This document shows, piece after piece, positions 7,766 to 27,978 of a stretch of DNA of 44,850 bases; position 1 is the first letter of the stretch; each line of letters opens with the position of its first letter. Made by a program: the position numbers and the translations under genes. The stretch spans positions 1 to 44,850 of the forward strand of contig CAIKZJ010000322.1 of the NCBI GenBank assembly GCA_903831845.1, written 5' to 3'. The notes under the pieces are model-generated. The model searched no databases and was not told the DNA's origin. It saw nothing but the letters and a program-made list of their open reading frames with translations. The stretch comes from an uncultured Ignavibacteriota bacterium. GTDB lineage: Bacteria; Bacteroidota; Ignavibacteria; Tepidaquicellales; Tepidaquicellaceae.

Positions 7766-7782
7766 ATATATAAATTTATTGA

Positions 7783-8757: not shown

Positions 8758-8822
8758 TTTTTATTTTTGATTAAATATTTATGAAAGTAGTAATTTAAAA
8801 GGGCTTAATAAATGGAGAAAAA

Positions 8823-8885: not shown

Positions 8886-8907
8886 ATATAGTATTAGTTT
8901 TCCGACT

Positions 8908-8993: not shown

Positions 8994-9011
8994 CACAAAA
9001 CGCCGGCTTAA

Positions 9012-9037
9012 ATGAAAAACCCGCTTTGAAGCGGGTT
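9012..9037 (-). terminator. Terminator of the acyl-CoA synthetase gene
   Basis: Minus strand AACCCGCTT-CA-AAGCGGGTT followed by TTTCATT. Confidence 0.8.
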
Positions 9038-9064
9038 ATATTTGAATATTTATTTTTGTTATTT

Positions 9065-10852: not shown

Positions 10853-11044
10853 TATTTTGATTTATAAATGAGACGAGTTGAATTTAATAAAAATGAATTT
10901 CAATTAAAACAATCATTATGAGAATAATAAATTATTATTTTGTTTAATATTTACCGTAATCATGACCCGGCATATTCTGAACGATGACTCATTTATTTTA
11001 TATACTGAACGTGAAAATTTGAGGAGGTTATTTTCGAATTTTAA

Positions 11045-11081
11045 GAATAAAAAAGGGGAGCAGATAAATACCCGCTCCCCT
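11045..11081 (-). terminator. Terminator of the C25 peptidase gene
   Basis: Minus strand AGGGGAGC...GCTCCCCTTTTTTATTC. Confidence 0.75.
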
Positions 11082-11102
11082 GGTGAGAAATCAATATAAA
11101 AA

Positions 11103-14100
11103 TTACTTGATCAGAATCATTCTCTTCACGTCGGTGAAGTCGTTCGATTCTATCCTGTAAAAATAAACGCCGCTTGAGAATTCGGCGCCGTTGAAATCGA
11201 CAGAGTAGTTTCCCGCCTGTTTGATTTCGTTCACGAGAGTCCTTACTTCCCTGCCGAGAACGTCGTATATCTTAAGTGTAACGAGTCCCTGTTTCGGCAA
11301 TGCGAAGTTAATCTTTGTTACGGGATTGAACGGATTCGGATAATTCTGCGCAAGGTTATACCTGTCGGGTATAACGTTGCCGTGATTTTCCGTTCCGTCG
11401 ATTGTAGTGACTGTGAAGCAGACGTTCGGTCTGTTCGACTGCGCTGCGCCGCTAGTCATAGTGCAGCCGGCGCTGTTGTCCGTGTAATATCCCCACGTCA
11501 TACCCGCCGCGGAAGTTGAATTGACCGTCGAGTATGATGTGTATGAAGTGTTATCGTAGCATACTTCAACAAGCAGGTTTGATGTTCCGTTGTACACAAA
11601 CGGCGTGTTAAGCTGTATATACTGCCAGCCCGTTCCCGGAACAGTATAGGTGCCCGAATAATTCGTTGTCCATCCGGAAGTAACCCAGCCCGTCAGACTC
11701 GTCTGTGATGTCAGCTGGAACTTAACGCTGAATCCGTTCATAAGCTGACTGGAAGCGGAGATTACATTGAATCCGAGTTTTGTGATCGCGCTGTTTATAC
11801 CCATACCTGCCGCTGTAAGTTCAGCGGAAGTGAACAGCATCTGCGTTCTTCCGTCCATCCAGTATGTTGTAAAAGGATAGTTCGACGAAGTTGTTCCTGT
11901 ACCGACGCACGCGTTAGTGAGATTTATTATCTTGAATTTATAGAGCGCGGTTGAATCCATATTATGCGCGCTCGAGTTGTCTTTTGCGAAAATCCTGTAG
12001 AATATCGAGTCGTTGTAATTTACCTGCGCCTGCGTGGAATTGAACGCGGCGCTGAAATTCGAGCCAGATGTGTTTATAAGCCTGAAATGATTCGTTCCGG
12101 TTGATGTATTGTTCTTGTACCATCTCACCCAGACTGAATCGATTCCGATATTATCCGTTGCGTTTGCCGTAACGGTTGCAGGCCATACTGATTTAGGTAC
12201 ATCCAGCAGAGCCGTGTGGGTTATAACCGGTTTAATGTTGTCTGGCGAAGCGACGAACGAGAAATAGTTCGCGGGTGCGCCGCCGGGCAGAGTCGAGACT
12301 CTTCCCATTCCGTCCACTGCTTTAATATAATACTTGTATGTCGCGGGAGAACCTGTTCCTGTAATGCTTGAAGTCCAGTTGGTTCCGCTCGAATTCGTCA
12401 TTGAAACGCTGTCGAAAGCAGTCGATGTGGTTTTAAACAGTTTTACGCTTGTTATCGGACTGCCTGTCGGGCTCACGACGCAATTGACAGTATAAGGTCC
12501 TGTGAGATTTTCCGTGTTCGGAAGCTGATTGTGTGAAATCGCAGGTCCGAGAGGAACGCCTCTGGTAAGTAGGAGCGAACAGTCTCCGAAGATATTATAC
12601 TGTTCCATGAGTTTAAGGCCTTCGCCCGTGCTGCCGCCGTTAATGTCCATAGCTGCCATAACGCCGAAGAAAGAAATCGCTCCAGCGGTTTTCTTCGTCT
12701 GGTTAGCGAGGTGTCTCATAGCCGCCATCTGCATATCGCAGGGCGGAACCCAGCTCGCGTTTGTGGATGACGCGTAAATCGTCACGCATCCTTTCGGGTT
12801 TGCAGTGTCTCCGGCCCTTAAAAGAGCTTCGGCCAAACATTCATTCAGAGTAAGGTTACCGTTGAGGCATGCAACGTCGCAAAGATAAGGTTCCCTCCAT
12901 CCGTTCGCCAGCTGATATGCATTTGTAACGGAGAATCCGGTGTTGCTCCAGGAGGTTCCCGAACCGTGTCCGATATAATTGAGGACGTATCTGCCTCCGT
13001 TCAGGCAGTTTATCAATGTCTGAGGTGTCGCTACGGGTCCGTTAACTTTATCGACCTGTGTAAATCCGTGCGCCATCAGAGTATCGCGCACCCAGTTCAT
13101 TCTGATAGAGTCGGCATACGGAGGCGAGCCGCCGACATCAGGACCGCCGATGCCCGTTCCCATGTTGTACCAGGGGGCGCCGTATTCTATGTCTCTTTCA
13201 AACTTTATGAATTTTTTTGCCACATAATCCACGCTTGCCGCGTTCTGGCAGGAAATTCTGGAAATGAAAGCGTCCGGATACGCGTCGGTTCCGGCGAGCT
13301 TCACATAGCAGGGATCGGACGGAGCGGATTCGTATACTCCGTTCAGAGTGGGAACGTCAGCGACGTCTCCTACTAATATAATATATGTAACAGAACCTGT
13401 CGAATTATACATGTTCTGTATGTAAGTTTTAATGGCTGTGTTTCCCGTGCCTGTTGTCGTCGGGTATTCTGCAACAGTTACGTTTAAACCGCGCGACTGT
13501 TTCCACGCCACGAGAGGCTGAATAGCGGTCATGTAAGCTGTCGGGCAGATGACGAGCATTTTACCGGGTTCCGGGATGGAATCGTACCTCATATCGCCTG
13601 TGCCGTAATTAATAAACAGGTCTCTGTAAATTCCGGCGAACTCGTTGGAAACCCTCGTGAGCGGGTTCTGCCTTACGAGAGGATTTACGGCCTTCACATT
13701 GTTGTCTGAATAAATTTCAACAACGAGTTTTCTTGTTATTATCAACTTTCCCTGCACAGGATTGTACTGCATGGGATTGAACTGAACCGTCATGCCCCTG
13801 AAATCCCTCACTATATAAGGAGTTTCAAATTCAATGTTGTTATGCGGATAATAACTGTCGGTTGAGTACACGCTGCTGAAAGTATAAGGTACGGAATTAG
13901 GGTCGATGTCTCTTGTGAAATGCCCCTTTGAAGGCATAACGGGAAGAGTCGAAACAGTCTCCGTTTCAGCGGACAGTATTCTGTAATTCATACCCGCGTT
14001 ATCGGGTATGAGAATACTGCGCTTGTAAGTGAGAAGCTCGGGATTACCTTTTTCCGAAAGCCATGACATTTCAGGAGCGGAAAAAGAAGTGTAAAGCGAG

Positions 14101-14294
14101 CCGTTAATTTTTATTTCTTTTGAATCAAATCCGCTGAACACGTATTCGAGTTTTGTGTAACCGCTTCTTGATTCAAGCAGATTGACTTTAATACCTGTTC
14201 CCTTGCTTTCTGTTGTAATCGCATTAGAAAAAACTGACTGGGAAAAAACGAATATCAACACCAGGGAAAATAAAGAGAGTAGATGTTTTTTCAT
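11103..14294 (-). CDS. Gingipain-like C25 family cysteine peptidase with T9SS sorting domain (1063 aa)
   Basis: MLVICPTAYMTAIQPLVAWKQSRGLNVTVAEYPTT...YIILVGDVADVPT...YVLNYIGHGSGTSWSNTGF...PYLCDVACLNGNLTLNECLAEALLRAG (His and Cys catalytic motifs); C-terminal YNLAQNYPNPFNPVTKINFALP...DVKRMILIK. Confidence 0.92.
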   Translation of the reverse strand: MKKHLLSLFSLVLIFVFSQSVFSNAITTESKGTGIKVNLLESRSGYTKLEYVFSGFDSKEIKINGSLYTSFSAPEMSWLSEKGNPELLTYKRSILIPDNAGMNYRILSAETETVSTLPVMPSKGHFTRDIDPNSVPYTFSSVYSTDSYYPHNNIEFETPYIVRDFRGMTVQFNPMQYNPVQGKLIITRKLVVEIYSDNNVKAVNPLVRQNPLTRVSNEFAGIYRDLFINYGTGDMRYDSIPEPGKMLVICPTAYMTAIQPLVAWKQSRGLNVTVAEYPTTTGTGNTAIKTYIQNMYNSTGSVTYIILVGDVADVPTLNGVYESAPSDPCYVKLAGTDAYPDAFISRISCQNAASVDYVAKKFIKFERDIEYGAPWYNMGTGIGGPDVGGSPPYADSIRMNWVRDTLMAHGFTQVDKVNGPVATPQTLINCLNGGRYVLNYIGHGSGTSWSNTGFSVTNAYQLANGWREPYLCDVACLNGNLTLNECLAEALLRAGDTANPKGCVTIYASSTNASWVPPCDMQMAAMRHLANQTKKTAGAISFFGVMAAMDINGGSTGEGLKLMEQYNIFGDCSLLLTRGVPLGPAISHNQLPNTENLTGPYTVNCVVSPTGSPITSVKLFKTTSTAFDSVSMTNSSGTNWTSSITGTGSPATYKYYIKAVDGMGRVSTLPGGAPANYFSFVASPDNIKPVITHTALLDVPKSVWPATVTANATDNIGIDSVWVRWYKNNTSTGTNHFRLINTSGSNFSAAFNSTQAQVNYNDSIFYRIFAKDNSSAHNMDSTALYKFKIINLTNACVGTGTTSSNYPFTTYWMDGRTQMLFTSAELTAAGMGINSAITKLGFNVISASSQLMNGFSVKFQLTSQTSLTGWVTSGWTTNYSGTYTVPGTGWQYIQLNTPFVYNGTSNLLVEVCYDNTSYTSYSTVNSTSAAGMTWGYYTDNSAGCTMTSGAAQSNRPNVCFTVTTIDGTENHGNVIPDRYNLAQNYPNPFNPVTKINFALPKQGLVTLKIYDVLGREVRTLVNEIKQAGNYSVDFNGAEFSSGVYFYRIESNDFTDVKRMILIK

Positions 14295-14514: not shown

Positions 14515-14553
14515 AAATAAAAAATCCGGTTATCGCCTCGCAACAACCGGATT
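14515..14553 (-). terminator. Terminator downstream of the glycan gene cluster
   Basis: Minus strand AATCCGGTT-gttgcgaggcgat-AACCGGATT followed by TTTTTATTT. Confidence 0.75.
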
Positions 14554-14657
14554 GGTTTTAAATAAGAAAGGGTAATTCTTATTTTATCTCATCCATCTAC
14601 TACAAACATAAGTACATTATTCTTAAATGTCAAGAGAAAAATCAATAAAGTTTTACT

Positions 14658-16124
14658 TTAGGTGCGTTTTATAAATATTGATTTTACAGTGGTTAATTTT
14701 ATCGTTTTTGTGAGGCTTAAAAAAATTATGAAGAAGGCTATGATGAAAAACGAAATTATTATTAAAATTACGTTATCGAAATATGAAGACGCCAGCGCGT
14801 AAAGAAAATACGAAATCGCCGCAAACCCGCTTATGACAAGTATTCCGGCGGTGTTGAATTCTATCCTGTAGATTTTAAGAGAACGTATGTAAAGATAAAC
14901 GAGCATGAAAAGATAAGTGACAAGCGTTGATACTGCGGCGCCCGTCATAATGTATTTCGGTATGAGTATGAAATTCATAACGGTATTCACAACGAATCCG
15001 AAAAACGTAACGAAAAACAATTCACCTGTCTTGTTGGCATAAAAAGGCGCGACGCTCATTGCGGAATACATCCCCGAAAAGAAATACGCGAGAAGAATCA
15101 GCGGCACTATCGTCAGCCCGCCCTGATAACGAGTATCAAGAAGAGAGAATTTCCCGAAAGATATTTTCACGAAGGGTGCGGTGAAAAAAGAGAAAATCAG
15201 GAATAACAGAAGTCCGGCAAACACAAGATATGTAAATATTTCCGATATCATTTTCTTGTTTTCGGGATTCTTCTCGAGGTTCAGGAAATAAGGCGTCCAG
15301 GAAAACCTGAACGCAGCGACAAGCAGCGACATTACGGACGCCAGCCTGTAGTTAGCGCTGTAAATTCCGACAACATCCTCGCTGAAGAAGTATTTAAGAA
15401 AGAACCTGTCGGACACGTCGATAAGCAGTATGAACAGGCCGATGTATATGAACTTGTTTCCGTAATGGACCAGCTTCTTCGCTTTATCGAATGAGAACGT
15501 GAATCCAAGATACCTGCCCGTAGCAAAAAGACCCGCAATAAAAGTTATTACACAGGATATGATGTAACTGTAGAAGATTCCTTCGACTCCGGTTTTCAGG
15601 TATACGATTAGAATGAAATTGGCGGCGATGTTCACTAAAACCGACAGCAGCGTGAGATACAGGTATGATGCGGCTTTCAGCTCGGCCCGTATCAGAAGCA
15701 GCGGAAAACGGAAAAGCGTATCTGTGAAAAGAAGCAGTCCGAGTATCTTTATTAGCTTAAGCCCGGTCTGCGGGTTTTCAAAACTGAACAAGCCGGATAA
15801 CGGGCCCGAAAGGAAATACAAAGCGGAAGAGAATGCAAGCGAAGTAAGTGCAAGCATTATCAGAGTTGTCGAATATATGTTTTTCTTTTCGCGCTCGTTT
15901 TCCGCATCTATAAAAAATTTAATAAAGGCGGTTTCCTGGCCGTAAAGGTAAATTAATATTATAAACAGCCAGACGGACTGCACTATGTTGTAAACACCGA
16001 GTTCCGAAGGCGCGAAATAATAAGTGTAAAGAGGCAGAAGAACGAACGATATTGCCTTATTGGCGAACAATCCGATTCCGTAAATCGTAGTCTGCGAGAA
16101 CAGGTCTTTTACATGCTTGCTCAA
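14658..16124 (-). CDS. Polysaccharide (Wzx-type) flippase
   Basis: Polytopic; MSKHVKDLFSQTTIYGIGLFANKAISFVLLPLYTYYFAPSELGVYNIVQSVWLFI. Confidence 0.88.
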   Translation of the reverse strand: MSKHVKDLFSQTTIYGIGLFANKAISFVLLPLYTYYFAPSELGVYNIVQSVWLFIILIYLYGQETAFIKFFIDAENEREKKNIYSTTLIMLALTSLAFSSALYFLSGPLSGLFSFENPQTGLKLIKILGLLLFTDTLFRFPLLLIRAELKAASYLYLTLLSVLVNIAANFILIVYLKTGVEGIFYSYIISCVITFIAGLFATGRYLGFTFSFDKAKKLVHYGNKFIYIGLFILLIDVSDRFFLKYFFSEDVVGIYSANYRLASVMSLLVAAFRFSWTPYFLNLEKNPENKKMISEIFTYLVFAGLLLFLIFSFFTAPFVKISFGKFSLLDTRYQGGLTIVPLILLAYFFSGMYSAMSVAPFYANKTGELFFVTFFGFVVNTVMNFILIPKYIMTGAAVSTLVTYLFMLVYLYIRSLKIYRIEFNTAGILVISGFAAISYFLYALASSYFDNVILIIISFFIIAFFIIFLSLTKTIKLTTVKSIFIKRT

Positions 16125-17167
16125 ATTCCGCTCTCCCTGTACAATTCTTCGAGTCTTCTGTTCACGCTTTCGAAAGAATGATACTTCTCAACCCACGCTC
16201 TCCCCTTTTCGGAATATTCTTTCAGTCTTTCCCTGTTCTTGAAGATATTAATAAGTGTTTCTTTCAGTGTGTCTATATTACAGCAAATAAAAGGATTTTC
16301 AGGAATGAATTCCATGTACTCGTCATAAAATTCCGTAATTGTCGGAAGCCCCATAGAAAGATTTTCTATCGAGTTCTTCCCGTAGCCGGAGCCGCCCATC
16401 ACGCCGCCTACCTGGTCTATGGAGAGGTCGCAGTTTCTTTTCATCTCAAGAAGTTTGTCGCGCGAGACGTTCTCGGCAAGTATGAATTCAAAATCGAAAT
16501 CATTTTTCAATTCTTCGATTACGGGCAGAATCCTGTCCGTGCCCTTGTAAAGACGGTTTGTGGGCGAGTGAATGATTTTCAGCTTTTCGTTTTTGCAGAA
16601 ATTATACTCCGTTCTCTTTACATCATACGGGAAAAACAGGTAATGAATATTCTTATGGAGACGCAGATGATCGAATTCCACTGTGAGGTTAAGCAAGCTC
16701 ATTTCGTCGAGTTCCCTGAATATCCCCCGGGTTCTGAGGTCGCTGCCGAAGTAACAGCAAACTATCTTCTTTCCCAGTTTCCTAAGTTCTTTGGCGAACC
16801 GCAGGTTTCTGTAAAAATCCATGCCGCCGTCGAAATGATAAACATCGTAGTCATACAGTTTATTATCGTCTATAAACTTCTCGATTACGCCGCTGTTTTT
16901 GAAATCGCGCAGTTTAAAGTATATGCTTTCGAGGGCATTCTTCGGTTTATAGTATTTCATACCGGTAATTTTCGAGTCGCGCCATTTTTTCGCGGCATTG
17001 CTAACCGGAAGATTGAAACCAAGCGTAAGATCTTCCTCGAAATTTATTGTATTCCTGAAAATCGTTACCAGACGGGCATTATAGCCGTTCTCGGACTGCA
17101 TCCTCGCGAAATCCAGCGGCATGCCCGCGAAATTCTGAGGAGCTATATGTAGGATTTTTTTATTCAA
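16121..17167 (-). CDS. Glycosyltransferase-like protein (GT-B fold likely)
   Basis: MNKKILHIAPQNFAGMPLDFARMQSENGYNARLVTIFRN...HSPTNRLYKGTDRILPVIEEL...DQVGGVMGGSGYGKNSIENLSMGLPTITEF; 4-nt overlap with the flippase gene. Confidence 0.75.
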   Translation of the reverse strand: MNKKILHIAPQNFAGMPLDFARMQSENGYNARLVTIFRNTINFEEDLTLGFNLPVSNAAKKWRDSKITGMKYYKPKNALESIYFKLRDFKNSGVIEKFIDDNKLYDYDVYHFDGGMDFYRNLRFAKELRKLGKKIVCCYFGSDLRTRGIFRELDEMSLLNLTVEFDHLRLHKNIHYLFFPYDVKRTEYNFCKNEKLKIIHSPTNRLYKGTDRILPVIEELKNDFDFEFILAENVSRDKLLEMKRNCDLSIDQVGGVMGGSGYGKNSIENLSMGLPTITEFYDEYMEFIPENPFICCNIDTLKETLINIFKNRERLKEYSEKGRAWVEKYHSFESVNRRLEELYRESGI

Positions 17168-17897
17168 TACTCAAAAGCCTTGATATATTGCGGAAAAATA
17201 TCAATTCTTTTTCTTCTTTGCTTATTTTCAGACTTTCGATTATCGGTATGTACATTTTCGGCAGGCCAAGGTTGTAATCGCTTCCGAATATCACCCTGTC
17301 CGCTCCGGCCGTCTTGACCACCTCGTTCACAAAATGAAATTCCCTTACAGATTCAGTTCCGAGATACACGTTTTTGAGTCCGCTTTCCTTTACCGCCGTG
17401 GCGCATCCGGTACACAGGGATGGCTGGTCGCCGCCGAGATGCGCGAGAATCACGTTGAGTTTCTTTCTTTTCTTCGCGACTTCCATCGGAAAAGTATAAC
17501 TCGCTATGTCCTGCCATCTTCCGCAATGAACGATGACGGGAATGTTCCTCTCTTCAGCTATGTCGAGATATTTTGAATACGGCTCGTCGGTTATTCTCAT
17601 TCTCTGAAACGACGGGTGGAACTTGAACACTTTAATGTCGTTCAGGTTGTTTTCAATGAACGAATCGAGTTTCGGGTCTTCAGGATTTATCCACGCCGCA
17701 AAATGAAATGTGAAATCGCTCTGCGATTTTATTTCGCCGAGAAGTTCGGCGTTCATGAAAGTATCGCAGGGCAGAGCCACAGCCGAATCTATCCCCGATT
17801 CCTTCATAACGCTGACCGCGTCGCTGACATTCGTTCCGTAATCGAGAAAAACGCTGCTCCATTTGCCTATGTGTATGTGCCCGTCGATTATTTTCAA
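17160..17897 (-). CDS. Amidohydrolase (amidohydrolase_2-type TIM-barrel metal-dependent hydrolase)
   Basis: MKIIDGHIHIGKW (HxH), VFKFHPSFQ, VIVHCGRW, VILAHLGGDQPS, VIFGSDYNLGLP. Confidence 0.85.
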   Translation of the reverse strand: MKIIDGHIHIGKWSSVFLDYGTNVSDAVSVMKESGIDSAVALPCDTFMNAELLGEIKSQSDFTFHFAAWINPEDPKLDSFIENNLNDIKVFKFHPSFQRMRITDEPYSKYLDIAEERNIPVIVHCGRWQDIASYTFPMEVAKKRKKLNVILAHLGGDQPSLCTGCATAVKESGLKNVYLGTESVREFHFVNEVVKTAGADRVIFGSDYNLGLPKMYIPIIESLKISKEEKELIFFRNISRLLSIE

Positions 17898-18808
17898 TTG
17901 AACCTGTCTCCTTTGTTAAATTCTTCAGTTAGGTTTATGCTTTCCATATTTTCGTCTCTTACGTCGTAATTCATTATGTAGCCGTCCCCGCATTTCACGA
18001 GTATAAAATCGTTGTTCACTTCCGTTATTTCACCGTTCACGCCGGGCTTATCGAGAGTGTAAAATGGTTTTGAGCGGAGAATATAGATACGCCGGCCGTT
18101 AAATTCAGTGTATGCTGCGGGATAAGGGAGAGTCAGAGCCCGAATTCTGTTGTAAATAGTCCTCACACCGGAATTCCAGTCTATTTTTCTCTCCTGCTCG
18201 TTAATTTTCTGATTCGGTTTCGGCTTTACCGACAGATCCTGCCTGGTAAATATGCCTGAACTTCCCGAAGTAAGTTTTTCGAATGCTTCCCTTAGAACAT
18301 GAGCGCAGTTGAAAGAGCATTTATAATAAAGCGTATTGACATCGTCTTCGTCGTCGACTATTATTTCCTTCTCAAGCAGTATATCGCCAGAGTCCAAGCC
18401 GCTGTCGACTTTATGGACCGTCAGGATAAGAGTATCGCTTCCTTCCATGATGGCTCTTGAAATCGGCGCTCTTCCCCTGAATTCCGGAAGCTTTCCGCAA
18501 TGGATATTAAGTATTCCGAATTCGGGAAGTCCGAAAACATCTTCCTTTATAATTTCCATGAATCCGGCGCTGACGCCCGCATCAAAGCCTTTGAGTTTTT
18601 CCTTTATCGATGATACATCATCGGTCTTTACGAGCTCAATACCCGCCGAAGCGCATATATCTCCAATTTTCTTATAGAAGTTGTCTTTCTGATTTTCGTA
18701 TTCGTATGTGCCGTGCGTCACAACGAGCGAAGGAGCAAAATCCATCGAGATAAGGTCATTAAGACACCTGAGGCTCATCTCGCCGTATGAAAGATAAAAA
18801 TATTTCAT
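17894..18808 (-). CDS. Formyltransferase family protein (Fmt/ArnA-N-like; likely sugar N-formyltransferase)
   Basis: GILNIHCGKLPEFRGRAPISRAIMEG...LTVHKVDSGLDSGDILLEKEI: N-H-D catalytic arrangement; C-terminal Fmt-like domain. Confidence 0.85.
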   Translation of the reverse strand: MKYFYLSYGEMSLRCLNDLISMDFAPSLVVTHGTYEYENQKDNFYKKIGDICASAGIELVKTDDVSSIKEKLKGFDAGVSAGFMEIIKEDVFGLPEFGILNIHCGKLPEFRGRAPISRAIMEGSDTLILTVHKVDSGLDSGDILLEKEIIVDDEDDVNTLYYKCSFNCAHVLREAFEKLTSGSSGIFTRQDLSVKPKPNQKINEQERKIDWNSGVRTIYNRIRALTLPYPAAYTEFNGRRIYILRSKPFYTLDKPGVNGEITEVNNDFILVKCGDGYIMNYDVRDENMESINLTEEFNKGDRFN

Positions 18809-19770
18809 TTGTTAAAATATTTTTTATACCACCTGTATGTTTTTAGTATGCCTTCGTTTAAATCGACCTTCGGCCTGAACCCGAGCATTTCCTGCGCTTT
18901 TTCTATGCTGGGTATTCTCAACTCAACATCCACATAATTCTTCGGTATGTATTTAACTGCCGATTTTGTTTTTGTGAGCGATATAATTTTTTCGGCGAGA
19001 GAAGATATCGTGATCGTACCTTTCGGGTTGCCGATGTTGAAAATTTCGCCTACGGCTTTTTTATTCGTAAGGCAGAGCATTGTTCCGTCGATCATATCGT
19101 CGATATAACACCACGACCTTATCTGATCGCCCTCGCCGTGTATCTGAATTTCCTTGTTCAGAACTGCGTTCTTTATGAAAATCTGTATCGCGCCCTCGCC
19201 TATCTGCCCCGGGCCGTATATATTAAAAGGCCTGATTGAAACCGCCGGATATCCTCTTGTCTTGTAATAGCTGTAAAGCAAATGCTCGCCTGAAACCTTG
19301 CTTATAGAGTAAGTCCACCTGCCCTCTCCGACGGGAGCAAGGTTGGTGTTTGACATTTCGCTTGACTTGTAGGCATATGCTCCGAGAACTTCGCTCGTGG
19401 AAAAGTTGACAACCCGTTCGAGTTTTCCGCTGTATTTTTCAAGCGCTTTAACGAAATTGAAAGTGCCGAGTATGTTAACATCCATAGTCTTGACGGGATT
19501 GTTTATGACCGTATCCACGCCGGCTATCGCCGCCAGATGAAGCGCTATCTGCGGTTTGAAATCCTCGGCTGCATTCTTAAGCATCGTGAAATCCGTGATA
19601 TCCCCTCTGACTATCTTTACGTTGCTCTTGTTTATTTTCTTGTATTTTAGCGAATCCCTCGCGAATATATCGTAAATCAGTATTTCATTGTCCTTGCTGA
19701 ATAACTCGGCCAGACGGCTTCCTATGAAACCGCCGCCTCCAGTAAGCAGAATTCTCTTGTTCTTTATCAT
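18805..19770 (-). CDS. NAD-dependent epimerase/dehydratase (extended SDR, ArnA-C/UXS-like)
   Basis: RILLTGGGGFIGSRLAELF...NFSTSEVLGAYAY...EGRWTYSISKVSGEHLLYSYYKTRGYPAVSIRPFNIYGPGQIGEGAIQIF. Confidence 0.9.
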   Translation of the reverse strand: MIKNKRILLTGGGGFIGSRLAELFSKDNEILIYDIFARDSLKYKKINKSNVKIVRGDITDFTMLKNAAEDFKPQIALHLAAIAGVDTVINNPVKTMDVNILGTFNFVKALEKYSGKLERVVNFSTSEVLGAYAYKSSEMSNTNLAPVGEGRWTYSISKVSGEHLLYSYYKTRGYPAVSIRPFNIYGPGQIGEGAIQIFIKNAVLNKEIQIHGEGDQIRSWCYIDDMIDGTMLCLTNKKAVGEIFNIGNPKGTITISSLAEKIISLTKTKSAVKYIPKNYVDVELRIPSIEKAQEMLGFRPKVDLNEGILKTYRWYKKYFNK

Positions 19771-19773
19771 TAT

Positions 19774-20739
19774 CTATAGATTTAGTGTAAAGCTTTTTCT
19801 TAAAAATCCGTCGGCCATAAACTTCTTTTTGAAGTCGAAAAGCCCCTGCAGAAGTTCGTTCCCGACGTTTGACGTTCCGATGTCGTAAAGGCGGAAATTG
19901 TTCAGTTTCGACCATTCAATCGTCTTATAGAGAAGGTAATCAGACACCCTGTCTTTTTTATGCTTCTCGTCAGCAGCAAGATAGAAATTAAGCACAACGT
20001 CGTCTTTCACAAGAAAGAGAGTGCATATGCCAGCCGTCTCGCCGTCGATCTTCGCGGTGAAAAGTTTTATCCTGTCTTTCATTACGTTCTTCAGGTACAC
20101 GAGCTCTTCCAGAGAATGCGTCGGCTTGACGTTCTTTAGCTCCCTGTTTGAATAAAGTATGTTGTAAAAATCGCCGAGTGTGTCTTTTGTTATGTTATCC
20201 TCTATCATATCTATGGCGATTATCTTAGCCGATTTCTGGATTGAACGCTTTTTGGGATTTTTCAGTTTTTCAAATTCAAAGCTCTTGAGGTCGACGATAT
20301 TCGTAATCGAATACCTTGTTACGTTGAATCCCGAAAGTATGAGCGCATATTCGTATTCCTCGTTCGCGTTCCTGTGGTAAATGTAAGGCGAATTGCGAAT
20401 AAGACATCTGGCGAAACCTCGGGAAGCAAGATATTCCCTGAATCCGGAAATGGCCTCGAGGAAATCTGTAATCTTCAGCTTGTCCCTCCAGAGAAAACCG
20501 CCGAAACTCACGCCGTCGCAGGATATGTAAGATTTAACGCCTTTATCCGTTACCTCATTTCCTGGAATTATCGCAACAACCTTGTTTTTTTCCCTGAAGA
20601 GAAGATGGTGCCATTTAATATTCTTCTCGAACACGTCGTTGTAGCAAAGGAACCTCTTGTCATAAAACATGTTATATTCGTGACTCAGGAAGTCATCCCA
20701 TTCTGCGCTTTTCGATATGTCTGTTTTTATTATTTCCAA
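19774..20739 (-). CDS. FemAB/GNAT-like acyltransferase
   Basis: MEIIKTDISKSAEWDDFLSHEYNMFYDKRFLCYNDVFEKNIKWHHLLFREKNKVVAIIPG...ETAGICTLFLVKDDVVLNFYLAADEKHKKDRVSDYLLYKTIEWSKLNNFRLYDIGTSN. Confidence 0.75.
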   Translation of the reverse strand: MEIIKTDISKSAEWDDFLSHEYNMFYDKRFLCYNDVFEKNIKWHHLLFREKNKVVAIIPGNEVTDKGVKSYISCDGVSFGGFLWRDKLKITDFLEAISGFREYLASRGFARCLIRNSPYIYHRNANEEYEYALILSGFNVTRYSITNIVDLKSFEFEKLKNPKKRSIQKSAKIIAIDMIEDNITKDTLGDFYNILYSNRELKNVKPTHSLEELVYLKNVMKDRIKLFTAKIDGETAGICTLFLVKDDVVLNFYLAADEKHKKDRVSDYLLYKTIEWSKLNNFRLYDIGTSNVGNELLQGLFDFKKKFMADGFLRKSFTLNL

Positions 20740-22406
20740 AAGTTGCTGTATAATTCGTACCCCGGAGACTTTTTCACAAGAATAAATCCTTCAGGAATAA
20801 ACAGGCCCGATTCCGGATAATCGCTTCTGTTAATCCTGTCTTTCTCGACTATAATGTTGCATGGCTCTTTTTTTCCCGTAAGCACCGCTTTTACGCTTTC
20901 GGTGCCGTTTTTAGTATCCAGAAATTCGAAATTGTATTTCCCTGTTTTCCATCCGAGATCAAGTCCGTCGAAATAAAAACTGAACTGGGGGTTAAACCTG
21001 TAATTGCTCGCGACATAAACAAGATTTCGGCCGCCGCTCTTTTCTATCTCATTCCTGATTCCGGTTATATTGAAGGAGTTCTCCCAGTACGGTATTCGCA
21101 GCGCGTACAAAGCGCTGATAAAAAATAAAAATACTAAAATAAAAGCATAGTATATACCCGGAATGCCCCGCCTCTTCTTCATCAAATAGAAAATGCTAAT
21201 AACAGAAAGCGCCGCCCAGACAGCCGTCAGAATGAGGAATACAGGCAGGTTGTCTTTCCGCAGAACATAACCTTCTTCAATCCTGAAGTAGTTCAGGACC
21301 GACCAGAAAATATTCAGAGCAGTGAATACGAGAAGCGATAATTTTTCCTTTAATTCGACCGCGTCGAGATTTCTGATATAATCTGCGGATATGAAGACCC
21401 CGGGAGTAAGTATAAGAAGTATGTATACTTCAAGCTTCGTACGGAAGAATGTGATTATCAGAAGGCCCGTAATGAACCAAACGAGGACGAATATTTCCTT
21501 TGCTCCGAGATTCCTGAAGTTAATGATCTTTTTGAACGCTCCGAAAAGCATAACGACTCCGTACGGAAGAATTGTGAGCAGATAGTTAATGTGGTATAAA
21601 TATCCGGAGCCTTTGGTGTTATGCTCCACTCCGAATAGCGCCCTTTCGTATATGTGATAGAAGAAGAAATAATTTACGAACTCTTTACCATAGGTAACGA
21701 ACATGTAAGCATGCCACGGCGCGGCTATTATTACGCCGATGATTGTCATTACAGAGAGATCGGCGAAACTGTATTTAAACCTTTTTCTTCCTGCGGCCAT
21801 CGCGAGGAAAAGCACCATGGGTATGAAAAATCCAACGAGTATTTTCACCATCAGGCAGAGGCCGAAAACGATTCCCGCGAAGTAATTATATTTCCTGTTT
21901 CCTGTGTCCAGGTATTTCAGGACCAGATAAAATGAAGAAACGATAAGAAGCGAGTACGGCATGTCGAACTGGAACCGGTTGCAGAAAATACTGAATATTA
22001 TATTGCTTGAAAAAATTACCGCGGCGATAATCCCCTCCCGCCCGCTGTAAATATTTTTCCCCATAAGCATCAGCATCCATAAAAGCGCCGCGCTTATGAT
22101 GAAAATAAAAATCTTGAAGCTTATATTATTCATCCCGAATACGGAAGTGAACAAATAGCCCGTCCAGATAAGAAGAGGAGGATGAGAGCCTGAATAGAAT
22201 TTACCCACTGAATGGCTGCTCTGGTCAAGAAAGTCTCCCGAATCCTTTATTGAAAGCACTCGCGTCGCGTACATGCCTTCATCCCAGGGCTGGATATCGG
22301 TGACAATAATCGTGTGAATTTTCGCGGCGAATAAAAATACGACGAGAAAAAAGAAAACGCGTTTCAGATTTTTCCCGTCGTCAAAATATTTTAAAATTCC
22401 TGTCAT
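20730..22406 (-). CDS. ArnT/PMT-like (GT39) membrane glycosyltransferase
   Basis: Polytopic; IIVTDIQPWDEGMYATRVLSI...SGSHPPLLIWTGYLFTSVFG: acidic residues in the first periplasmic loop typical of GT-C/ArnT. Confidence 0.85.
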   Translation of the reverse strand: MTGILKYFDDGKNLKRVFFFLVVFLFAAKIHTIIVTDIQPWDEGMYATRVLSIKDSGDFLDQSSHSVGKFYSGSHPPLLIWTGYLFTSVFGMNNISFKIFIFIISAALLWMLMLMGKNIYSGREGIIAAVIFSSNIIFSIFCNRFQFDMPYSLLIVSSFYLVLKYLDTGNRKYNYFAGIVFGLCLMVKILVGFFIPMVLFLAMAAGRKRFKYSFADLSVMTIIGVIIAAPWHAYMFVTYGKEFVNYFFFYHIYERALFGVEHNTKGSGYLYHINYLLTILPYGVVMLFGAFKKIINFRNLGAKEIFVLVWFITGLLIITFFRTKLEVYILLILTPGVFISADYIRNLDAVELKEKLSLLVFTALNIFWSVLNYFRIEEGYVLRKDNLPVFLILTAVWAALSVISIFYLMKKRRGIPGIYYAFILVFLFFISALYALRIPYWENSFNITGIRNEIEKSGGRNLVYVASNYRFNPQFSFYFDGLDLGWKTGKYNFEFLDTKNGTESVKAVLTGKKEPCNIIVEKDRINRSDYPESGLFIPEGFILVKKSPGYELYSNFWK

Positions 22407-22441
22407 TAACCGTTCTTAACAGCAAGAAATATGAGAGCAAA

Positions 22442-23359
22442 TCAGAAATTAAAACCCAGCGACATCGAGTTTCCTGAGCCGAAACCTATTGTGTAAGGCT
22501 GGAAAGCATAATCGATGTAAAGAGATTTATACTTCAGGCCGAGACCTGCCGAAAAACTCCTGTTCTCATACCCTGTCTGGTAACCGGCCCGGAGAAATAT
22601 AAAATCCTTGTATCCCGCTTCGGCTCCCATATGCGTGTGCAGCACGCCGCCGTCGAGGATCTTGTAACCGTCGAGCGCCCCTGTGAAAGTGAAATTATTC
22701 TTTCTCAAAACATAACTTCCTCCAAAACGCAGAGCGGTGGGAAGCTTAGTTTCGGCGTTATAAAGCGCGTTCATCGAGCCGATGTTCGAAAGCACTACGG
22801 CGAAAGAGACATCGTTAATCTTATAGTTTGCTCCGAAATCAAGTCCGTATCCCGAAGCTTCGTCTATATATATCTTTTCATAGAGCATCTTAACCGTTAT
22901 ACCCGCCGTGAAATTGCTCTGTATATCGTAGCAAAGGCTTATACCGCCTGCAAAATTGTCGGAATTGAAAGTTTCAATAGGCGCGCCGGGATTGTTCCTA
23001 ACCTCGATATCGCTGACAGTGGTTTTAAGAAGCCCGATGCCCAGGCCGAATTTATTCATCCTGAATTTCGCGCCGACAAAGTTTGTCGTCATATCCAGCA
23101 TCGTCTTGTTGAACATAGCTGTAACGTTGCCGTTTTCAGTGGAATTAATCCTTGCCGGGTTGTAAATAAACGCCGTGCCGTCATCCGCAAGCGACACGTA
23201 AGCGTCGCCCATGGCTATCGAACGCGCCCCTATACCGAGTTTAAGGAACGAAAGACCGGTATTGGCCGCGCCGTCATTCTGGCCGCGGGCTATACCCGCG
23301 AATAGGAGGATTAACACCGCTATTGAAAATTTCCGCATATATATATTCTTATTCTTCAA
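22442..23359 (-). CDS. PorV/PorQ family outer-membrane barrel, paralogue 1
   Basis: NTGLSFLKLGIGARSIAMGDAYVSLADDGTAFIYNPARINS...FLRAGYQTGYENRSFSAGLGLKYKSLYIDYAFQPYTIGFGSGNSMSLGFNF. Confidence 0.88.
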   Translation of the reverse strand: MKNKNIYMRKFSIAVLILLFAGIARGQNDGAANTGLSFLKLGIGARSIAMGDAYVSLADDGTAFIYNPARINSTENGNVTAMFNKTMLDMTTNFVGAKFRMNKFGLGIGLLKTTVSDIEVRNNPGAPIETFNSDNFAGGISLCYDIQSNFTAGITVKMLYEKIYIDEASGYGLDFGANYKINDVSFAVVLSNIGSMNALYNAETKLPTALRFGGSYVLRKNNFTFTGALDGYKILDGGVLHTHMGAEAGYKDFIFLRAGYQTGYENRSFSAGLGLKYKSLYIDYAFQPYTIGFGSGNSMSLGFNF

Positions 23360-23371
23360 GTTATGAATAAA

Positions 23372-24412
23372 TTATTTGAATTTAAAAGCAATTCCTATGT
23401 TCTGAACAGGTTTATGCGTATAAGGTTCTATCTGAAAGCTGTAATCGAGTCCGAGATTAATGTCTTTCGTAAAAGTTTTAGAAAGTCCGATACCAGCTCC
23501 CGGCTGTATATTGCCGAAGAAATCATCGGATTTGAGATCCATCCTGTCGATCCCCGCGCGTACTTTCACGTAATCGTTCAGATTAATTTCACATCCGACC
23601 TTAAGCGCGAAATTATAACTTCTCTTGCTTTCGGTTTTAATGCCGAGAGAATCTGTCGTTACAAACCTGGGATTTACGTAAGTATCGAATCCCGCCGAGA
23701 CAATTCCGAGTTTATTCGGCAGGTTGTATGTTCCTCCGAATCCTACGAGCACGGGAAATTTTTCCTCGGACGTAGTGCCGTTCGTTCCGTAAACCTTATT
23801 GTCTGTAGTTTCCCATTTGTATTTCACGCCGAGGTCTCTTGCCGAAATCCCGAATGTAAGGTCTTTAGAAGCCAGGTATGTAAGGCCGAGGTCGAAGCCG
23901 ACGCTCGTAGTATTCACTCCTTCATAGAGTTTGGAGTAATAGAGTTTGACGCCCACACCCAGAGCCATTTCCGGTGAAACAAGGAAACTCATACCCATAA
24001 GGAACTGATTTTCGTACGTGCTTAGCATCCCGAGAGAACGCGCGTCGTTATCCCTGCCGTCAATATCGGAGACTCCCGCGTTTATCCACGAAAGGCTTAT
24101 TCCCGCAGTCTGCTTCCCGCCTGAAAGAGAGAATTTTTTCGCGAACGAAACAAAATTCAGTTTTCTGTCAAGGCTCAGAAAAGTGTAGCCGAGGTTCACT
24201 ATGCCGTTTTCCTGAAAACAGCTTAGGGACGGGTTGTAGTATCCGGAAATATCCCCGTACCTGTCGGAAACAAGCGTGTTTCCCATCGAGAGGCCTCTTG
24301 CTCCGAAACCCATTCTTGCAAAACTCCCGGCGTAACTTCCCAGCTGAGCGTGTGCAGTCGTGAAAGCCGCGAGAATTAGTAATAGTGCAAAATATTTTTT
24401 CATATAATTCAA
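23372..24412 (-). CDS. PorV/PorQ family outer-membrane barrel, paralogue 2
   Basis: SYAGSFARMGFGARGLSMGNTLVSDRYGDISGYYNPSLSCFQENGIVNLGYTFLSLDRKLNFVSFAKKF...NIGIAFKFK. Confidence 0.88.
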   Translation of the reverse strand: MNYMKKYFALLLILAAFTTAHAQLGSYAGSFARMGFGARGLSMGNTLVSDRYGDISGYYNPSLSCFQENGIVNLGYTFLSLDRKLNFVSFAKKFSLSGGKQTAGISLSWINAGVSDIDGRDNDARSLGMLSTYENQFLMGMSFLVSPEMALGVGVKLYYSKLYEGVNTTSVGFDLGLTYLASKDLTFGISARDLGVKYKWETTDNKVYGTNGTTSEEKFPVLVGFGGTYNLPNKLGIVSAGFDTYVNPRFVTTDSLGIKTESKRSYNFALKVGCEINLNDYVKVRAGIDRMDLKSDDFFGNIQPGAGIGLSKTFTKDINLGLDYSFQIEPYTHKPVQNIGIAFKFK

Positions 24413-24424
24413 ACTCTTTGATTT

Positions 24425-26038
24425 TTATTTCATTAAAATAACTTTGCCCCAGAACGGAGTCTCGTCGTCGACTTCAATCCTGTAAAAATAAACTGCGTTA
24501 GCCACCACATAACCGTCATCGTTTTTACCGTCCCATATCACAAAATTCACGTCGTTGTTTGTGCGTGTCGCGTTCTGGATTACCGTTCTGACGTGATTCA
24601 TTCCGAAATCGAAAATCTTTATCGTTACTTTCGACGATGGTTTGCTTGTCTTAAAGAAGAATCTAGTGACTTCATTATTGGGCGAAAATGGATTCGGCGC
24701 CGCATAAGTTGTCGTGGTCGATGAAATATCGCCGCAGGCGCGGAAAATTTTCCAGGCCGCCGTCCAGGGCGCGCCTGTTTCCTTCGTTCTCAGAAGTCCG
24801 TCGGCGCTGCCGAAATACAAAGTGTCGTTAATGTAATTTCCCGAATAGAAATTATTCGATTTGCAGATATCTTTCGAGACCGGATCCGCTATCAGCGACG
24901 GTTTCGACCAGTCGAACTTTCCGAAATTCGCGCGCCATATCCCGCCGTCAGTGAATCCGTAAACTATCGAATCCCTTGAACTTATTCCGTTTGGCGAGTA
25001 TCCCTGAAGCGTGTAAGCCCAGGTCTGTCCTCTGTTCGAGGAAAAACTCAGAGCGTTGACTTCGTTGTTGTCTTCGGCTCTTCTTGTTGCCGCCCACCAT
25101 ATCTCTTTCGAGCCGTACTTCTGTACATGGAACTTAACGACGAAATTTCCCGAAACCCTGTTTGTGCCGCTGCCCGAGTTCTGAAAACTGCGTTTCTTCC
25201 AGCTAACGCCCCAGTCGGTCGATATGTTTATTCCGTTCGCGGTGCCTACCATGAGAGTTGAATCGTTTATTGACTCCACAGCGAACACCCTGTGATTAAG
25301 GTTTATTCTCGGATTAAGAGTGAAAGTGTAGGTTCCTCCGGTGTATATGCTGTCCAGATCATCCGGCGGAAGCACAACTCTCTGCCATGTCGCTCCGTAA
25401 TCAGTCGATTTTCTAAGTCCTCCCGCAAACGATGCGACCCAGATAGTGTAATTTAGAGTGTCGTTCTTCGTGCGGGTTATGCCTATGTCGTAAGTCAGAT
25501 TCTGCTGTCTTACTACTACCGGAAGCGCATAAAGCGTGTTGGCTCCGTAAGTGACGGAGGAATCCGCCTGTCCGTCTATAGGCTGCGGGTTGGAGTTCCA
25601 CGTGCGGCCGAAATCGGTCGAAACCTTTATACCTGTGCCCGTCGGAACGTTTTCTCCGCTTATTTCCTGGCTGATTGCCGTTGCTACAACGAGCATGTTA
25701 TTCTTAAGCGTAAACCCTGAAACATCGTCGTCTCCGAAGGGTTCCGTGCCGATGTAATACTCAAAACTGCCGAACCTGTCTACGGTTCTCATAATGCCGC
25801 TGCCTGTTCCGAACCATACTGTGTCGCCCGATTTGTAAATGTCGGTAATGAAATTGCTGATAGGACATTTCGAGCTTTTAGGCGCCGCGATTACGGAGGT
25901 TATTTTACCCGTCTTTTTTACGGCCGTTATCCCGTTATCCTTGAACCTGCCTATTGAGAAACTTTCGGGAATGACCTGTGAATACAGGTTTACTGCCGTA
26001 AAGATAATAATTACCGGAAATATTTTTCTTAGTATCAT
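24425..26038 (-). CDS. Secreted BNR/YCF48-like repeat protein with FlgD-like C-terminal domain
   Basis: IKVSTDFGRTWN, RKSTDYGATWQRV, INISTDWGVSWKKR repeats; C-terminus YAAPNPFSPNNEVTRFFFKTSKPSSKVTIKIFDFGMNHVRTVI...WDGKNDDGYVVANAVYFYRIEV...GKVILMK. Confidence 0.82.
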   Translation of the reverse strand: MILRKIFPVIIIFTAVNLYSQVIPESFSIGRFKDNGITAVKKTGKITSVIAAPKSSKCPISNFITDIYKSGDTVWFGTGSGIMRTVDRFGSFEYYIGTEPFGDDDVSGFTLKNNMLVVATAISQEISGENVPTGTGIKVSTDFGRTWNSNPQPIDGQADSSVTYGANTLYALPVVVRQQNLTYDIGITRTKNDTLNYTIWVASFAGGLRKSTDYGATWQRVVLPPDDLDSIYTGGTYTFTLNPRINLNHRVFAVESINDSTLMVGTANGINISTDWGVSWKKRSFQNSGSGTNRVSGNFVVKFHVQKYGSKEIWWAATRRAEDNNEVNALSFSSNRGQTWAYTLQGYSPNGISSRDSIVYGFTDGGIWRANFGKFDWSKPSLIADPVSKDICKSNNFYSGNYINDTLYFGSADGLLRTKETGAPWTAAWKIFRACGDISSTTTTYAAPNPFSPNNEVTRFFFKTSKPSSKVTIKIFDFGMNHVRTVIQNATRTNNDVNFVIWDGKNDDGYVVANAVYFYRIEVDDETPFWGKVILMK

Positions 26039-26055
26039 TTTAAATTCTTAATTCT

Positions 26056-26844
26056 TTAATTTGGCCTGACGAATTTGATGCTGTCTTTATAAACCGCGCT
26101 GCTAAGTTCCGAACGGTCTATCGCCGTGAAGAAATACTTATAAAAGCCGTAGGATGAATCAGGAACGGCATATGTCACAGTGTTTGTATAAGAATAAACG
26201 TTGTTACCGTCGTAATTCATCGCATAGCGGCCGATGAAATTCCCGCTCGGCCTGTATGCGTCCATATATACGAATGCTATATCGCAGTGTCCGTCAGGGT
26301 CGGTTGCAGTAAGCGACAGTGTCAGATTAAAAGAACCTGAAAGCGGCCTTACAACGCTGTCGGGTATACTTGGATTGGACAGGACAGGAGCATGATTCGA
26401 GGTATTCATCACGTGAAATTCCGAGCCTATCATATTGCTGTTGAGCCCCTTCTCGTTCGCGGCTATTACCTGAATCGTGTAATTGCCCACGAGCAGGCAG
26501 GAGACTGTTCCTGTGGTTATAGTCGCCGCGAATTTTTTTCCTGTCGCAGTGTCCTTGATATATGCGAGATTGTAAGTTCCAAGGCTCGCGCTGTTCGGGT
26601 CAAGGACGGTGCAGGTAACTCCGCTTAACGGAGCGCCGTTGTTTATATCAGCCTGCACCGAAACATAGAAGCTGATGACAGGCGATCCGGAGTTTGTTTT
26701 CACGGTGTCCGGAGTTCTGACAAGATTGGTAATGACAGGCGAATCGTATGACGGGTCGATCACGCTGTCGTTTTTCTTCTCGCATGAATACATAATAATA
26801 CCTGCAATAAGAAAAACCGCCATTATGCTTGCTCTTTTTAACAT
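26056..26844 (-). CDS. Lipoprotein with Ig-like domains
   Basis: Lipobox MAVFLIAGIIMYSCEKKNDS; beta-rich repeats. Confidence 0.7.
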   Translation of the reverse strand: MLKRASIMAVFLIAGIIMYSCEKKNDSVIDPSYDSPVITNLVRTPDTVKTNSGSPVISFYVSVQADINNGAPLSGVTCTVLDPNSASLGTYNLAYIKDTATGKKFAATITTGTVSCLLVGNYTIQVIAANEKGLNSNMIGSEFHVMNTSNHAPVLSNPSIPDSVVRPLSGSFNLTLSLTATDPDGHCDIAFVYMDAYRPSGNFIGRYAMNYDGNNVYSYTNTVTYAVPDSSYGFYKYFFTAIDRSELSSAVYKDSIKFVRPN

Positions 26845-27090: not shown

Positions 27091-27978
27091 TCAGATTTTA
27101 CGGTTTTTTATCGCCCTGTCGATGGAATCCGCAATATCGGGCTGTTTCAGGCCGTAACTTTCAAGTTTGTCTGTGTTCATAGACACATCGGGTACCTGCG
27201 GCAATCCTTCCGCTGTTTTACAGGATACGGGTTTAAGCAGGCTTTTGCTGAATCCCGCCGATTCGCAGATAAGTTCGCCTATTTCAAGTCTTGATATCCT
27301 GTCCCTCCCTCCGAAATTCAGTGTTTCGTTTTTAACAGTCATACCGCACAGGCTGTTTATAATATCTGCAGCATTTTCGAGTAAGAGCGGGCTTCTGTAC
27401 TGATCAAAAAACATTCTGACCTCTTTTCCCTGTTCAAGAGATTCATATGTATGATGAAAGTTGTTCCTCGAATGATTCAAACCAAACCCGATGAGCAAAG
27501 CGGTACGTAGGATTATATAATTATCAGAGTTTCTCTGAACCGCGATTTCCCCCATAAGTTTTGATTCCGCATAAAGCGTCAGCGGGTTCAGGTCGGCGTC
27601 TTCGTCCAGCAGGCCTTTTCCGGACCCGTCGTAAACAAGATCGGTTGAAGTGTATATCATCCTGGAATTATAATCAGTGCACATACGGGCAATATTCTCT
27701 GTCGCTTCAACGTTAAGACGGTAGACTTCGCTTCTTGGCAGGCCTGCGCAAATTTCAGGACGCGAGTAGCATGCCGTATGGATTACCACATCGGGTCTGA
27801 AATTAATAAACAAAAGCGACAATTTCGCCTTGTCGGTTATGTCGATCTTCATGGAATTGTATTTGTAGCAATTCCCCGGATTTACGTTATACAGAGTAAG
27901 CAGTTCTTTTTCGGAAGATAATCTGATATTCAGATATTGACCCAGCAATCCGCCTCCGCCTGTAAGCAATACTTTCAT
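27091..27978 (-). CDS. SDR sugar-nucleotide reductase, RmlD-like
   Basis: MKVLLTGGGGLLGQYLNIRLSSEKELLTLYN...FRPDVVIHTACYSRPEICAGLPRSEVYRLNVEATENIARMC...YTSTDLVYDGSGKGLLDEDADLNPLTLYAESKLMGE. Confidence 0.85.
   Translation of the reverse strand: MKVLLTGGGGLLGQYLNIRLSSEKELLTLYNVNPGNCYKYNSMKIDITDKAKLSLLFINFRPDVVIHTACYSRPEICAGLPRSEVYRLNVEATENIARMCTDYNSRMIYTSTDLVYDGSGKGLLDEDADLNPLTLYAESKLMGEIAVQRNSDNYIILRTALLIGFGLNHSRNNFHHTYESLEQGKEVRMFFDQYRSPLLLENAADIINSLCGMTVKNETLNFGGRDRISRLEIGELICESAGFSKSLLKPVSCKTAEGLPQVPDVSMNTDKLESYGLKQPDIADSIDRAIKNRKI

What the first reader, a model, noticed from the sequence alone, without database searches (positions are those of the whole stretch)
14515..26844. One co-directional run joins a T9SS cargo/PorV-like module to a glycan-building module
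Seen: eleven minus-strand genes with gaps of at most 35 nt, or short overlaps, run from a lipoprotein (26844) through a FlgD-tailed secreted protein, two PorV/PorQ-like barrels, GT39, FemAB-like, epimerase, formyltransferase, amidohydrolase and glycosyltransferase genes to a Wzx-like flippase, ending at a terminator (14515-14553). Known: in studied T9SS systems, PorV carries cargo to PorU, which can attach it to anionic LPS. Inference: the unit may couple one cargo set, its carriers and the glycan that anchors or decorates it, i.e. a dedicated surface-display locus.
Basis: partly seen in the sequence, partly recalled or inferred. Interest (0 to 1): 0.62.

Follow-up and report, generated by a model that had tools for sequence, protein, structure and literature searches.

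The report
Secretion-surface genes fused to a sugar operon
Eleven genes sit in one tight run that joins a spare set of outer-membrane parts from the type IX protein-secretion machine to genes that build and flip an envelope sugar; relatives keep this arrangement while swapping the sugar enzymes, which suggests that the bacterium ties a surface protein device to a custom-made sugar.

Summary
In detail: eleven co-directional genes (14658-26844) with gaps of at most 35 nt, no internal terminator at the key junction and a 3' terminator. The linkage is real and old. The full order recurs through the window's family (Ignavibacteria). In the sister family lipoprotein, propeller, both PorV-like barrels, FemAB, GT and flippase keep their order while the middle sugar genes are replaced. 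Across the class, FemAB lies within 5 kb of the PorV-like gene in 41 of 46 genomes that have both.

Lipoprotein-propeller-barrel-barrel is a phylum-wide cassette that often stands alone, so the halves are not obligate partners. The "cargo" looks like a fixed surface component: one copy, C-terminal domain closer to PorU's than to ordinary cargo. The genome keeps a canonical PorU/PorV/PorQ/PorZ set elsewhere, so this is a second, paralogous set.

The FemAB-like enzyme has a FemX fold and matches TIGR03019, as does P. gingivalis VimA (adds the amino acid of the T9SS linking sugar). Best guess: the operon makes an aminoacylated surface glycan handled by, or anchoring, this second surface device (about 40%). 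No such locus was found in the papers searched.

The parts
26056..26844 (-). predicted surface lipoprotein (lipobox-like IMYSC), first gene of the run
   Evidence: no NCBIfam match; same position in nearly all related loci
24425..26038 (-). secreted beta-propeller protein (Asp-box/BNR type) with a T9SS-type C-terminal domain (about residues 442-537)
   Evidence: AlphaFold pLDDT 88; lowest Foldseek E-value is PorZ 5m11 (5e-13) but TM only 0.28; CTD matches PorU model 7.6e-8, cargo tail only 0.0054; invariant Q21 near the predicted signal-peptide cleavage site
23372..24412 (-). PorV/PorQ-family outer-membrane barrel b
   Evidence: NF033709 82 bits, below the cut-off of 90
22442..23359 (-). PorV/PorQ-family outer-membrane barrel a
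   Evidence: NF033709 136 bits, over the cut-off; best solved relative PorV 6h3i E 0.0015
20730..22406 (-). PMT_2/ArnT-like GT-C glycosyltransferase; found in the window's family, replaced in the sister family
   Evidence: PF13231 1.1e-17; NF009784 (ArnT) 2.6e-16
19774..20739 (-). FemAB-like, probably aminoacyl-tRNA-dependent transferase (VimA-like candidate)
   Evidence: TIGR03019 1.2e-6; AlphaFold pLDDT 94, Foldseek top hits FemX, E 7.5e-15, TM 0.76; profile hits aminoacyl-tRNA-dependent peptide synthase 9wqw 8.8e-7
18805..19770 (-). NDP-sugar 4,6-dehydratase/epimerase/decarboxylase-type SDR
   Evidence: PF01370 8.8e-50; TSE and YxxxK motifs kept in 23/23
17894..18808 (-). sugar N-formyltransferase-like enzyme; lost in several relatives
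   Evidence: PF00551/PF02911; N-H-D residues invariant in 15/15
17160..17897 (-). amidohydrolase (Amidohydro_2), possible sugar N-deacylase
   Evidence: PF04909 7.4e-16; HxH, H, H and D metal residues invariant in 23/23
16121..17167 (-). glycosyltransferase-like protein without a Pfam/NCBIfam family; marker of the locus
14658..16124 (-). Wzx-type lipid-linked glycan flippase
   Evidence: PF01943 4.5e-15
14523..14553 (-). terminator-like hairpin and T tail after the last gene

Best explanation
The run is one operon that couples a second, paralogous T9SS surface module to a glycan cassette. Shown by sequence: the surface module is a lipoprotein, a beta-propeller protein with a T9SS-type C-terminal domain and two PorV/PorQ-family barrels, and it is a conserved unit across much of the phylum. 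In the window's class the genes 3' of it are glycan genes (GTs, in most genomes a FemAB-type transferase, often a Wzx flippase) that are exchanged while the module stays. Inferred: in the cytoplasm the sugar enzymes and GTs build a lipid-linked glycan; FemAB adds an amino acid (from aminoacyl-tRNA) to an amino sugar, as VimA is proposed to do for the P. gingivalis T9SS linking sugar; Wzx flips it and it reaches the outer leaflet on LPS or a similar lipid. The propeller protein is exported by the genome's T9SS, keeps its C-terminal domain, stays on one of the two barrels (as PorZ does on PorQ) and binds or presents this glycan. The free amino group of the aminoacyl sugar could then serve as acceptor for sortase-type attachment of proteins by PorU; alternatively the device only holds the glycan.
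For: Operon structure. Order kept over about 15 genera of the family and, with different middle genes (EpsG-like and AsnB in place of GT39, epimerase, formyltransferase and amidohydrolase), in the sister family. FemAB within 5 kb of PorVa in 41/46 class genomes with both, 39 of them downstream on the same strand, chance about 0.1. FemAB fold and family: FemX-like, TIGR03019, to which VimA also matches (PMC7468200). TIGR03108-type AsnB (3e-111; the family of WbpS) in the sister family and CE4 deacetylases (the VimE family) in other families of the class fit other Vim/Wbp-type roles. The FemAB slot was refilled or sharply changed: FemAB of the window's family is 27% identical to that of outgroups whereas the sister family's is 44%; f1+f2 as one FemAB clade is rejected (AU p 0.0066), while PorVa puts f1+f2 together (100/97). 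So FemAB changed along with the sugar genes. Propeller: single copy in nearly all genomes, 35-76% identity over the class, CTD matches the PorU model in 39/41 orthologs but the cargo tail in only 12/41. PorU and PorZ are held on the barrels PorV and PorQ and the PorZ CTD is not cleaved.
Against: The cassette stands alone in other groups of the phylum, so it does not need this glycan there. A canonical PorU/PorV/PorQ/PorZ set exists elsewhere, and another FemAB sugar cluster (contig C408, with WbpB-family and hexapeptide enzymes) may make the canonical linker. FemAB scores far below the TIGR03019 equivalog cut-off (27.8 vs 260 bits). Wbp-pathway genes are not in the run. The propeller is not PorZ by NCBIfam and has one propeller, not two; the Foldseek TM-score is low. 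VimA itself could not be compared directly. Five class genomes hold both genes unlinked. The FemAB incongruence could reflect fast evolution rather than replacement.
Confidence: 0.4

Rival explanations
1. The genes are co-transcribed for envelope co-regulation only. The glycan genes make an ordinary O-antigen-like or exopolysaccharide chain, the FemAB protein is a generic sugar N-acyltransferase, and the PorV-like cassette is a functionally separate outer-membrane device.
For: The cassette and FemAB/GT genes occur apart in many genomes. The own genome has another FemAB polysaccharide-type cluster. The glycan genes turn over, as in O-antigen loci.
Against: 41/46 linkage and reuse of the same slot 3' of PorVa by different FemAB subfamilies and different GTs; a GT-flippase set also follows PorVa in family f37 of another class (L236). 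Repeated attachment at one place is more than expected of bystanders.
Confidence: 0.3
2. Dedicated surface-display locus: the propeller protein is the cargo, the two barrels are its private shuttle, and the glycan decorates or covalently anchors it.
For: The T9SS-type CTD gene and PorV-family barrel genes are adjacent; type B cargo genes in F. johnsoniae often lie beside their own shuttle gene (PMC12618676).
Against: One conserved protein rather than a variable cargo; cargo-tail model below cut-off (16.7 vs 23 bits) while the PorU CTD region matches better; the cassette occurs without glycan genes; two barrels for one cargo.
Confidence: 0.17
3. The operon makes the linking sugar used by the canonical PorU/PorZ complex for all type A cargo, and the extra barrels only help.
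For: VimA-, VimE- and WbpS-family members occur at this locus across the class; PorU is present in all 59 relatives.
Against: Families f3, f8 and f13 have PorU and the cassette but no such FemAB; a more Wbp/Vim-like cluster lies elsewhere in the own genome.
Confidence: 0.13

Closest known systems
P. gingivalis T9SS attachment complex PorU-PorV-PorQ-PorZ (PMC5562754, PMC8545088)
   Same: Two PorV/PorQ-family barrels and a propeller protein with an Ig-like C-terminal domain; a surface glycan is involved
   Different: Single propeller, no sortase gene in the run, members fail the PorV, PorQ and PorZ models, and the canonical set is present elsewhere in the genome
Wbp/Vim linking-sugar pathway (VimA, VimE, VimF, WbpS; PMC7468200)
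   Same: FemAB-type transferase near a GT; CE4 deacetylase or TIGR03108-type AsnB at the locus in other families of the class
   Different: Wbp genes absent from the run; in the window's family formyltransferase, amidohydrolase and epimerase are there instead; here the genes share an operon with PorV-like barrels
Exosortase XrtA/PEP-CTERM EPS loci (TIGR03019, TIGR03108)
   Same: FemAB and amidotransferase families beside GT and flippase genes, tied to a protein-sorting system
   Different: No exosortase or PEP-CTERM protein among the genes; the sorting parts are T9SS-type
Type B CTD/PorP-SprF shuttle pairs of Flavobacterium (PMC12618676)
   Same: A CTD protein encoded next to an outer-membrane barrel
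   Different: PorV/PorQ-family rather than PorP/SprF barrels, two per locus, plus glycan genes

Membership tests
T9SS PorZ | NCBIfam NF052228 at or over 260 bits; two seven-bladed propellers plus CTD | tested here: not met
   Window protein has no NF052228 match at 0.01; 5 of 41 orthologs match weakly; one propeller in the model; canonical PorZ is on contig C184 with 362 bits
T9SS PorV (shuttle) | NF033710 at or over 250 bits | tested here: not met
   51 and 25 bits
T9SS PorQ | NF033711 at or over 220 bits | tested here: not met
   79 and 56 bits; canonical PorQ on C173 with 236 bits
PorV/PorQ family (broad) | NF033709 at or over 90 bits | tested here: inconclusive
   Barrel a 136 bits, met; barrel b 82 bits, just below
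T9SS type A cargo | Por_Secre_tail TIGR04183 at or over 23 bits | tested here: not met
   16.7 bits for the propeller protein; the neighbouring protein at 11103-14294 does meet it with 42.9 bits
FemAB/FemX aminoacyl-tRNA-dependent transferase fold | Double GNAT fold of the FemX type | tested here: met
   Foldseek FemX E 7.5e-15, TM 0.76; profile hits
VimA (linking-sugar aminoacyl transferase) | Match to TIGR03019, as reported for VimA | tested here: inconclusive
   E 1.2e-6 but 27.8 bits against an equivalog cut-off of 260; genes in the same slot in f2 and f18 reach 68-78 bits
VimA (linking-sugar aminoacyl transferase) | Transfers Ser or Gly to an amino sugar | not testable with these tools
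   Needs an enzyme assay or mass spectrometry
Wbp/Vim pathway locus | Wbp genes, CE4 VimE, VimA and VimF together | tested here: not met
   Only FemAB and a GT in the window run; CE4 appears at the locus in other families
XrtA/PEP-CTERM system | Exosortase present in the locus | tested here: not met
   None of the genes matches an exosortase family
Wzx-dependent glycan cluster | Wzx-type flippase with GTs | tested here: met
   PF01943 4.5e-15, GT genes adjacent; no polymerase recognised in the window run

The most novel reading that the evidence does not exclude
A second protein-to-glycan attachment system in Bacteroidota outside the classical PorU-PorZ route: an exchangeable sugar cassette with a FemAB aminoacyl transferase writes a lineage-specific acceptor sugar, and a paralogous propeller/barrel complex reads it, the two being kept together by one operon.
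Probability: 0.22. Interest if true: 0.78.

Novelty: new variant of a known kind. Interest (0 to 1): 0.56.

Why it matters
In P. gingivalis the T9SS surface parts and the linking-sugar genes do not form one operon, and the linking sugar stayed unidentified for more than two decades (PMC7468200). An operon that ties PorV-family barrels and a CTD propeller to a FemAB-type sugar enzyme, with the sugar part swapped between lineages, would give a natural experiment on which glycan features the surface complex reads. It also points to a widespread T9SS-paralogous cassette (170 of 393 sampled genomes of the phylum have the propeller) for which no description was found, in environmental bacteria in which it could be tested.

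Tried and rejected
Propeller as canonical PorZ: rejected, the genome has PorZ elsewhere and the NCBIfam test fails. Barrels as the canonical PorV/PorQ pair: rejected. ArnA/ArnT-like Ara4N pathway reading of epimerase + formyltransferase + GT-C enzyme: considered; no ArnB or ArnC in the run and the formyltransferase is lost in several relatives, so kept only as a hint of an N-formylated or N-acyl sugar. Large secreted protein at 11103-14294 as part of the unit: rejected, beyond the terminator and next to the run only in close relatives. M50 peptidase, radical SAM, DUF1207, GT2 and CE4 genes upstream of the lipoprotein in other families: M50 is present but unlinked in the window's family, so not part of this run. 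Literature: no paper in the held library has both 'type IX secretion' and 'FemAB', none has PorV with operon, flippase and polysaccharide biosynthesis terms. The library lacks most subscription journals and preprints.
Full report
Observation. Gaps are 35 nt at most and most junctions in the 3' half overlap or nearly touch. The scan finds no terminator-like or promoter-like site in 22406-22442 and a strong terminator-like hairpin after the last gene. In 23 related loci the PorVa-to-GT39 gap has a median of 19 nt. Upstream of the lipoprotein there is a gap of about 246 nt in which blocks are conserved among genus members, consistent with a promoter there; no Bacteroidota-type promoter motif was recognised.

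Gene identities. Pfam and NCBIfam give PorV/PorQ-family barrels, a propeller protein with an Ig-like C-terminal domain, a PMT_2/ArnT-like enzyme, a FemAB-like protein, an SDR sugar enzyme, a formyltransferase, an amidohydrolase and a Wzx-type flippase. The GT at 16121-17167 matches nothing but is strongly conserved (25-row alignment, 60% mean column identity). Catalytic residues of formyltransferase, amidohydrolase and SDR are invariant among orthologs, so the enzymes look intact.

Conservation inside the class. Loci around the PorVa ortholog were fetched from 40 related genomes. The full order recurs through the window's family; the formyltransferase is sometimes missing. The sister family keeps lipoprotein, propeller, barrels, FemAB, GT and flippase but has an EpsG-like protein and an asparagine-synthase-type amidotransferase in the middle. 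More distant families keep propeller-barrel-barrel, usually followed by FemAB and a GT or by a GT alone. Starting instead from the GT in named genomes, the neighbours are again the barrels, propeller and FemAB, and the records are mostly Ignavibacteria MAGs. In one genus of the window's family the GT and flippase are separated from the rest.

Linkage count. In 393 genomes sampled from the phylum, 46 class genomes have both FemAB and PorVa; 41 have them within 5 kb, 39 of these co-directional with FemAB downstream; about 0.1 expected by chance. The genomes are related, so this is not a p-value. In families f44/f56 of another class both genes exist and are unlinked in 8 of 8. Other families have only one of the two.

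The cassette outside the class. The propeller ortholog is found in 170 of 393 genomes, and the PorVa-type barrel lies beside it in most genomes whose coordinates are listed. In twenty further loci lipoprotein-propeller-barrel-barrel recurs as a unit, often preceded by an M50 peptidase gene. In several families PorVa is the last gene of the run, while in L236 (f37) and L239 (f16) a GT, a Wzx-type flippase, a further gene (deacetylase-like in L236) and a GT follow. So the protein module is older and can act alone, and glycan genes have been attached 3' of PorVa more than once or lost repeatedly.

FemAB. The model (pLDDT 94) matches FemX with E 7.5e-15 and TM 0.76; the family profile matches aminoacyl-tRNA-dependent enzymes. 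TIGR03019 is matched weakly in the window and better by the genes in the same slot elsewhere. Veith and colleagues report that P. gingivalis VimA matches TIGR03019, that VimE is a putative CE4 enzyme and that WbpS relatives belong to TIGR03108 (PMC7468200). CE4 and TIGR03108-type genes occur at this locus in other families. Pairwise identities show FemAB as the outlier of the run; its tree does not join the window's family to the sister family (AU p 0.0066), whereas PorVa does. The full tree was seen before the AU test was run on a thinned set, and long branches are in play, so replacement versus rapid change is open; either way FemAB changed along with the sugar genes.

Propeller protein. The model (pLDDT 88) shows one propeller plus a C-terminal beta-sandwich. 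PorZ is the best PDB match by E-value but the superposition is poor (TM 0.28) and other propellers follow closely. The C-terminal domain matches PorU's in 39 of 41 orthologs and the cargo-tail model in 12. In P. gingivalis PorU and PorZ are held on the barrels PorV and PorQ and the C-terminal domain of PorZ is not cleaved. This favours a resident component over a cargo, by inference.

Own genome. PorU (split over contigs C362 and C204) beside PorV on C204, PorQ on C173 and PorZ on C184 make a canonical set. A second FemAB lies on C408 with GT4s, a hexapeptide acyltransferase and a GFO/IDH/MocA oxidoreductase, a candidate Wbp/Vim-like cluster. The locus under study is therefore an additional set.

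Conclusion. The most economical reading is a second T9SS-type surface module operonically coupled to an exchangeable, probably aminoacylated glycan. The chemical step and the physical partnership remain untested.

Noticed in passing
window 11103-14294 (-): Large secreted protein with a proper T9SS type A sorting domain (TIGR04183 3.6e-11), C25-peptidase-like by eye, just downstream of the terminator; an ordinary T9SS cargo next to the operon, not conserved beside it except in close relatives.
   Followed up: partly
L211 (G000 contig C408, about 250-12568): Second FemAB gene (TIGR03019 96 bits) in a cluster with a hexapeptide acyltransferase, a GFO/IDH/MocA oxidoreductase and several GTs: a Wbp/Vim-like cluster elsewhere in the same genome.
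   Followed up: partly
L173, L175, L202, L204 next to the lipoprotein gene: In other families of the class the operon is longer: CE4 deacetylase, GT2, radical SAM, DUF1207, M50 peptidase, then lipoprotein-propeller-barrels-FemAB-GT. The role of the radical SAM enzyme and DUF1207 is unexplained.
   Followed up: partly
L236 (9611-14580) and L239 (8962-13923): A similar four-gene glycan set (GT4, Wzx, a 515-522 aa protein that is deacetylase-like in L236, GT) follows PorVa in families f37 and f16 of different classes.
   Followed up: partly
window 24425-26038 residue 21 and 22442-23359 residue 27 (alignments): An invariant glutamine sits right after the predicted signal-peptide cleavage site in both the propeller and barrel a, like the Q-rule described for Bacteroidetes (PMC5837995), here in Ignavibacteria.
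   Followed up: no
window 27091-27978 (-): RmlD-like sugar reductase gene on the same strand about 246 nt upstream of the run, kept there only in close relatives.
   Followed up: partly
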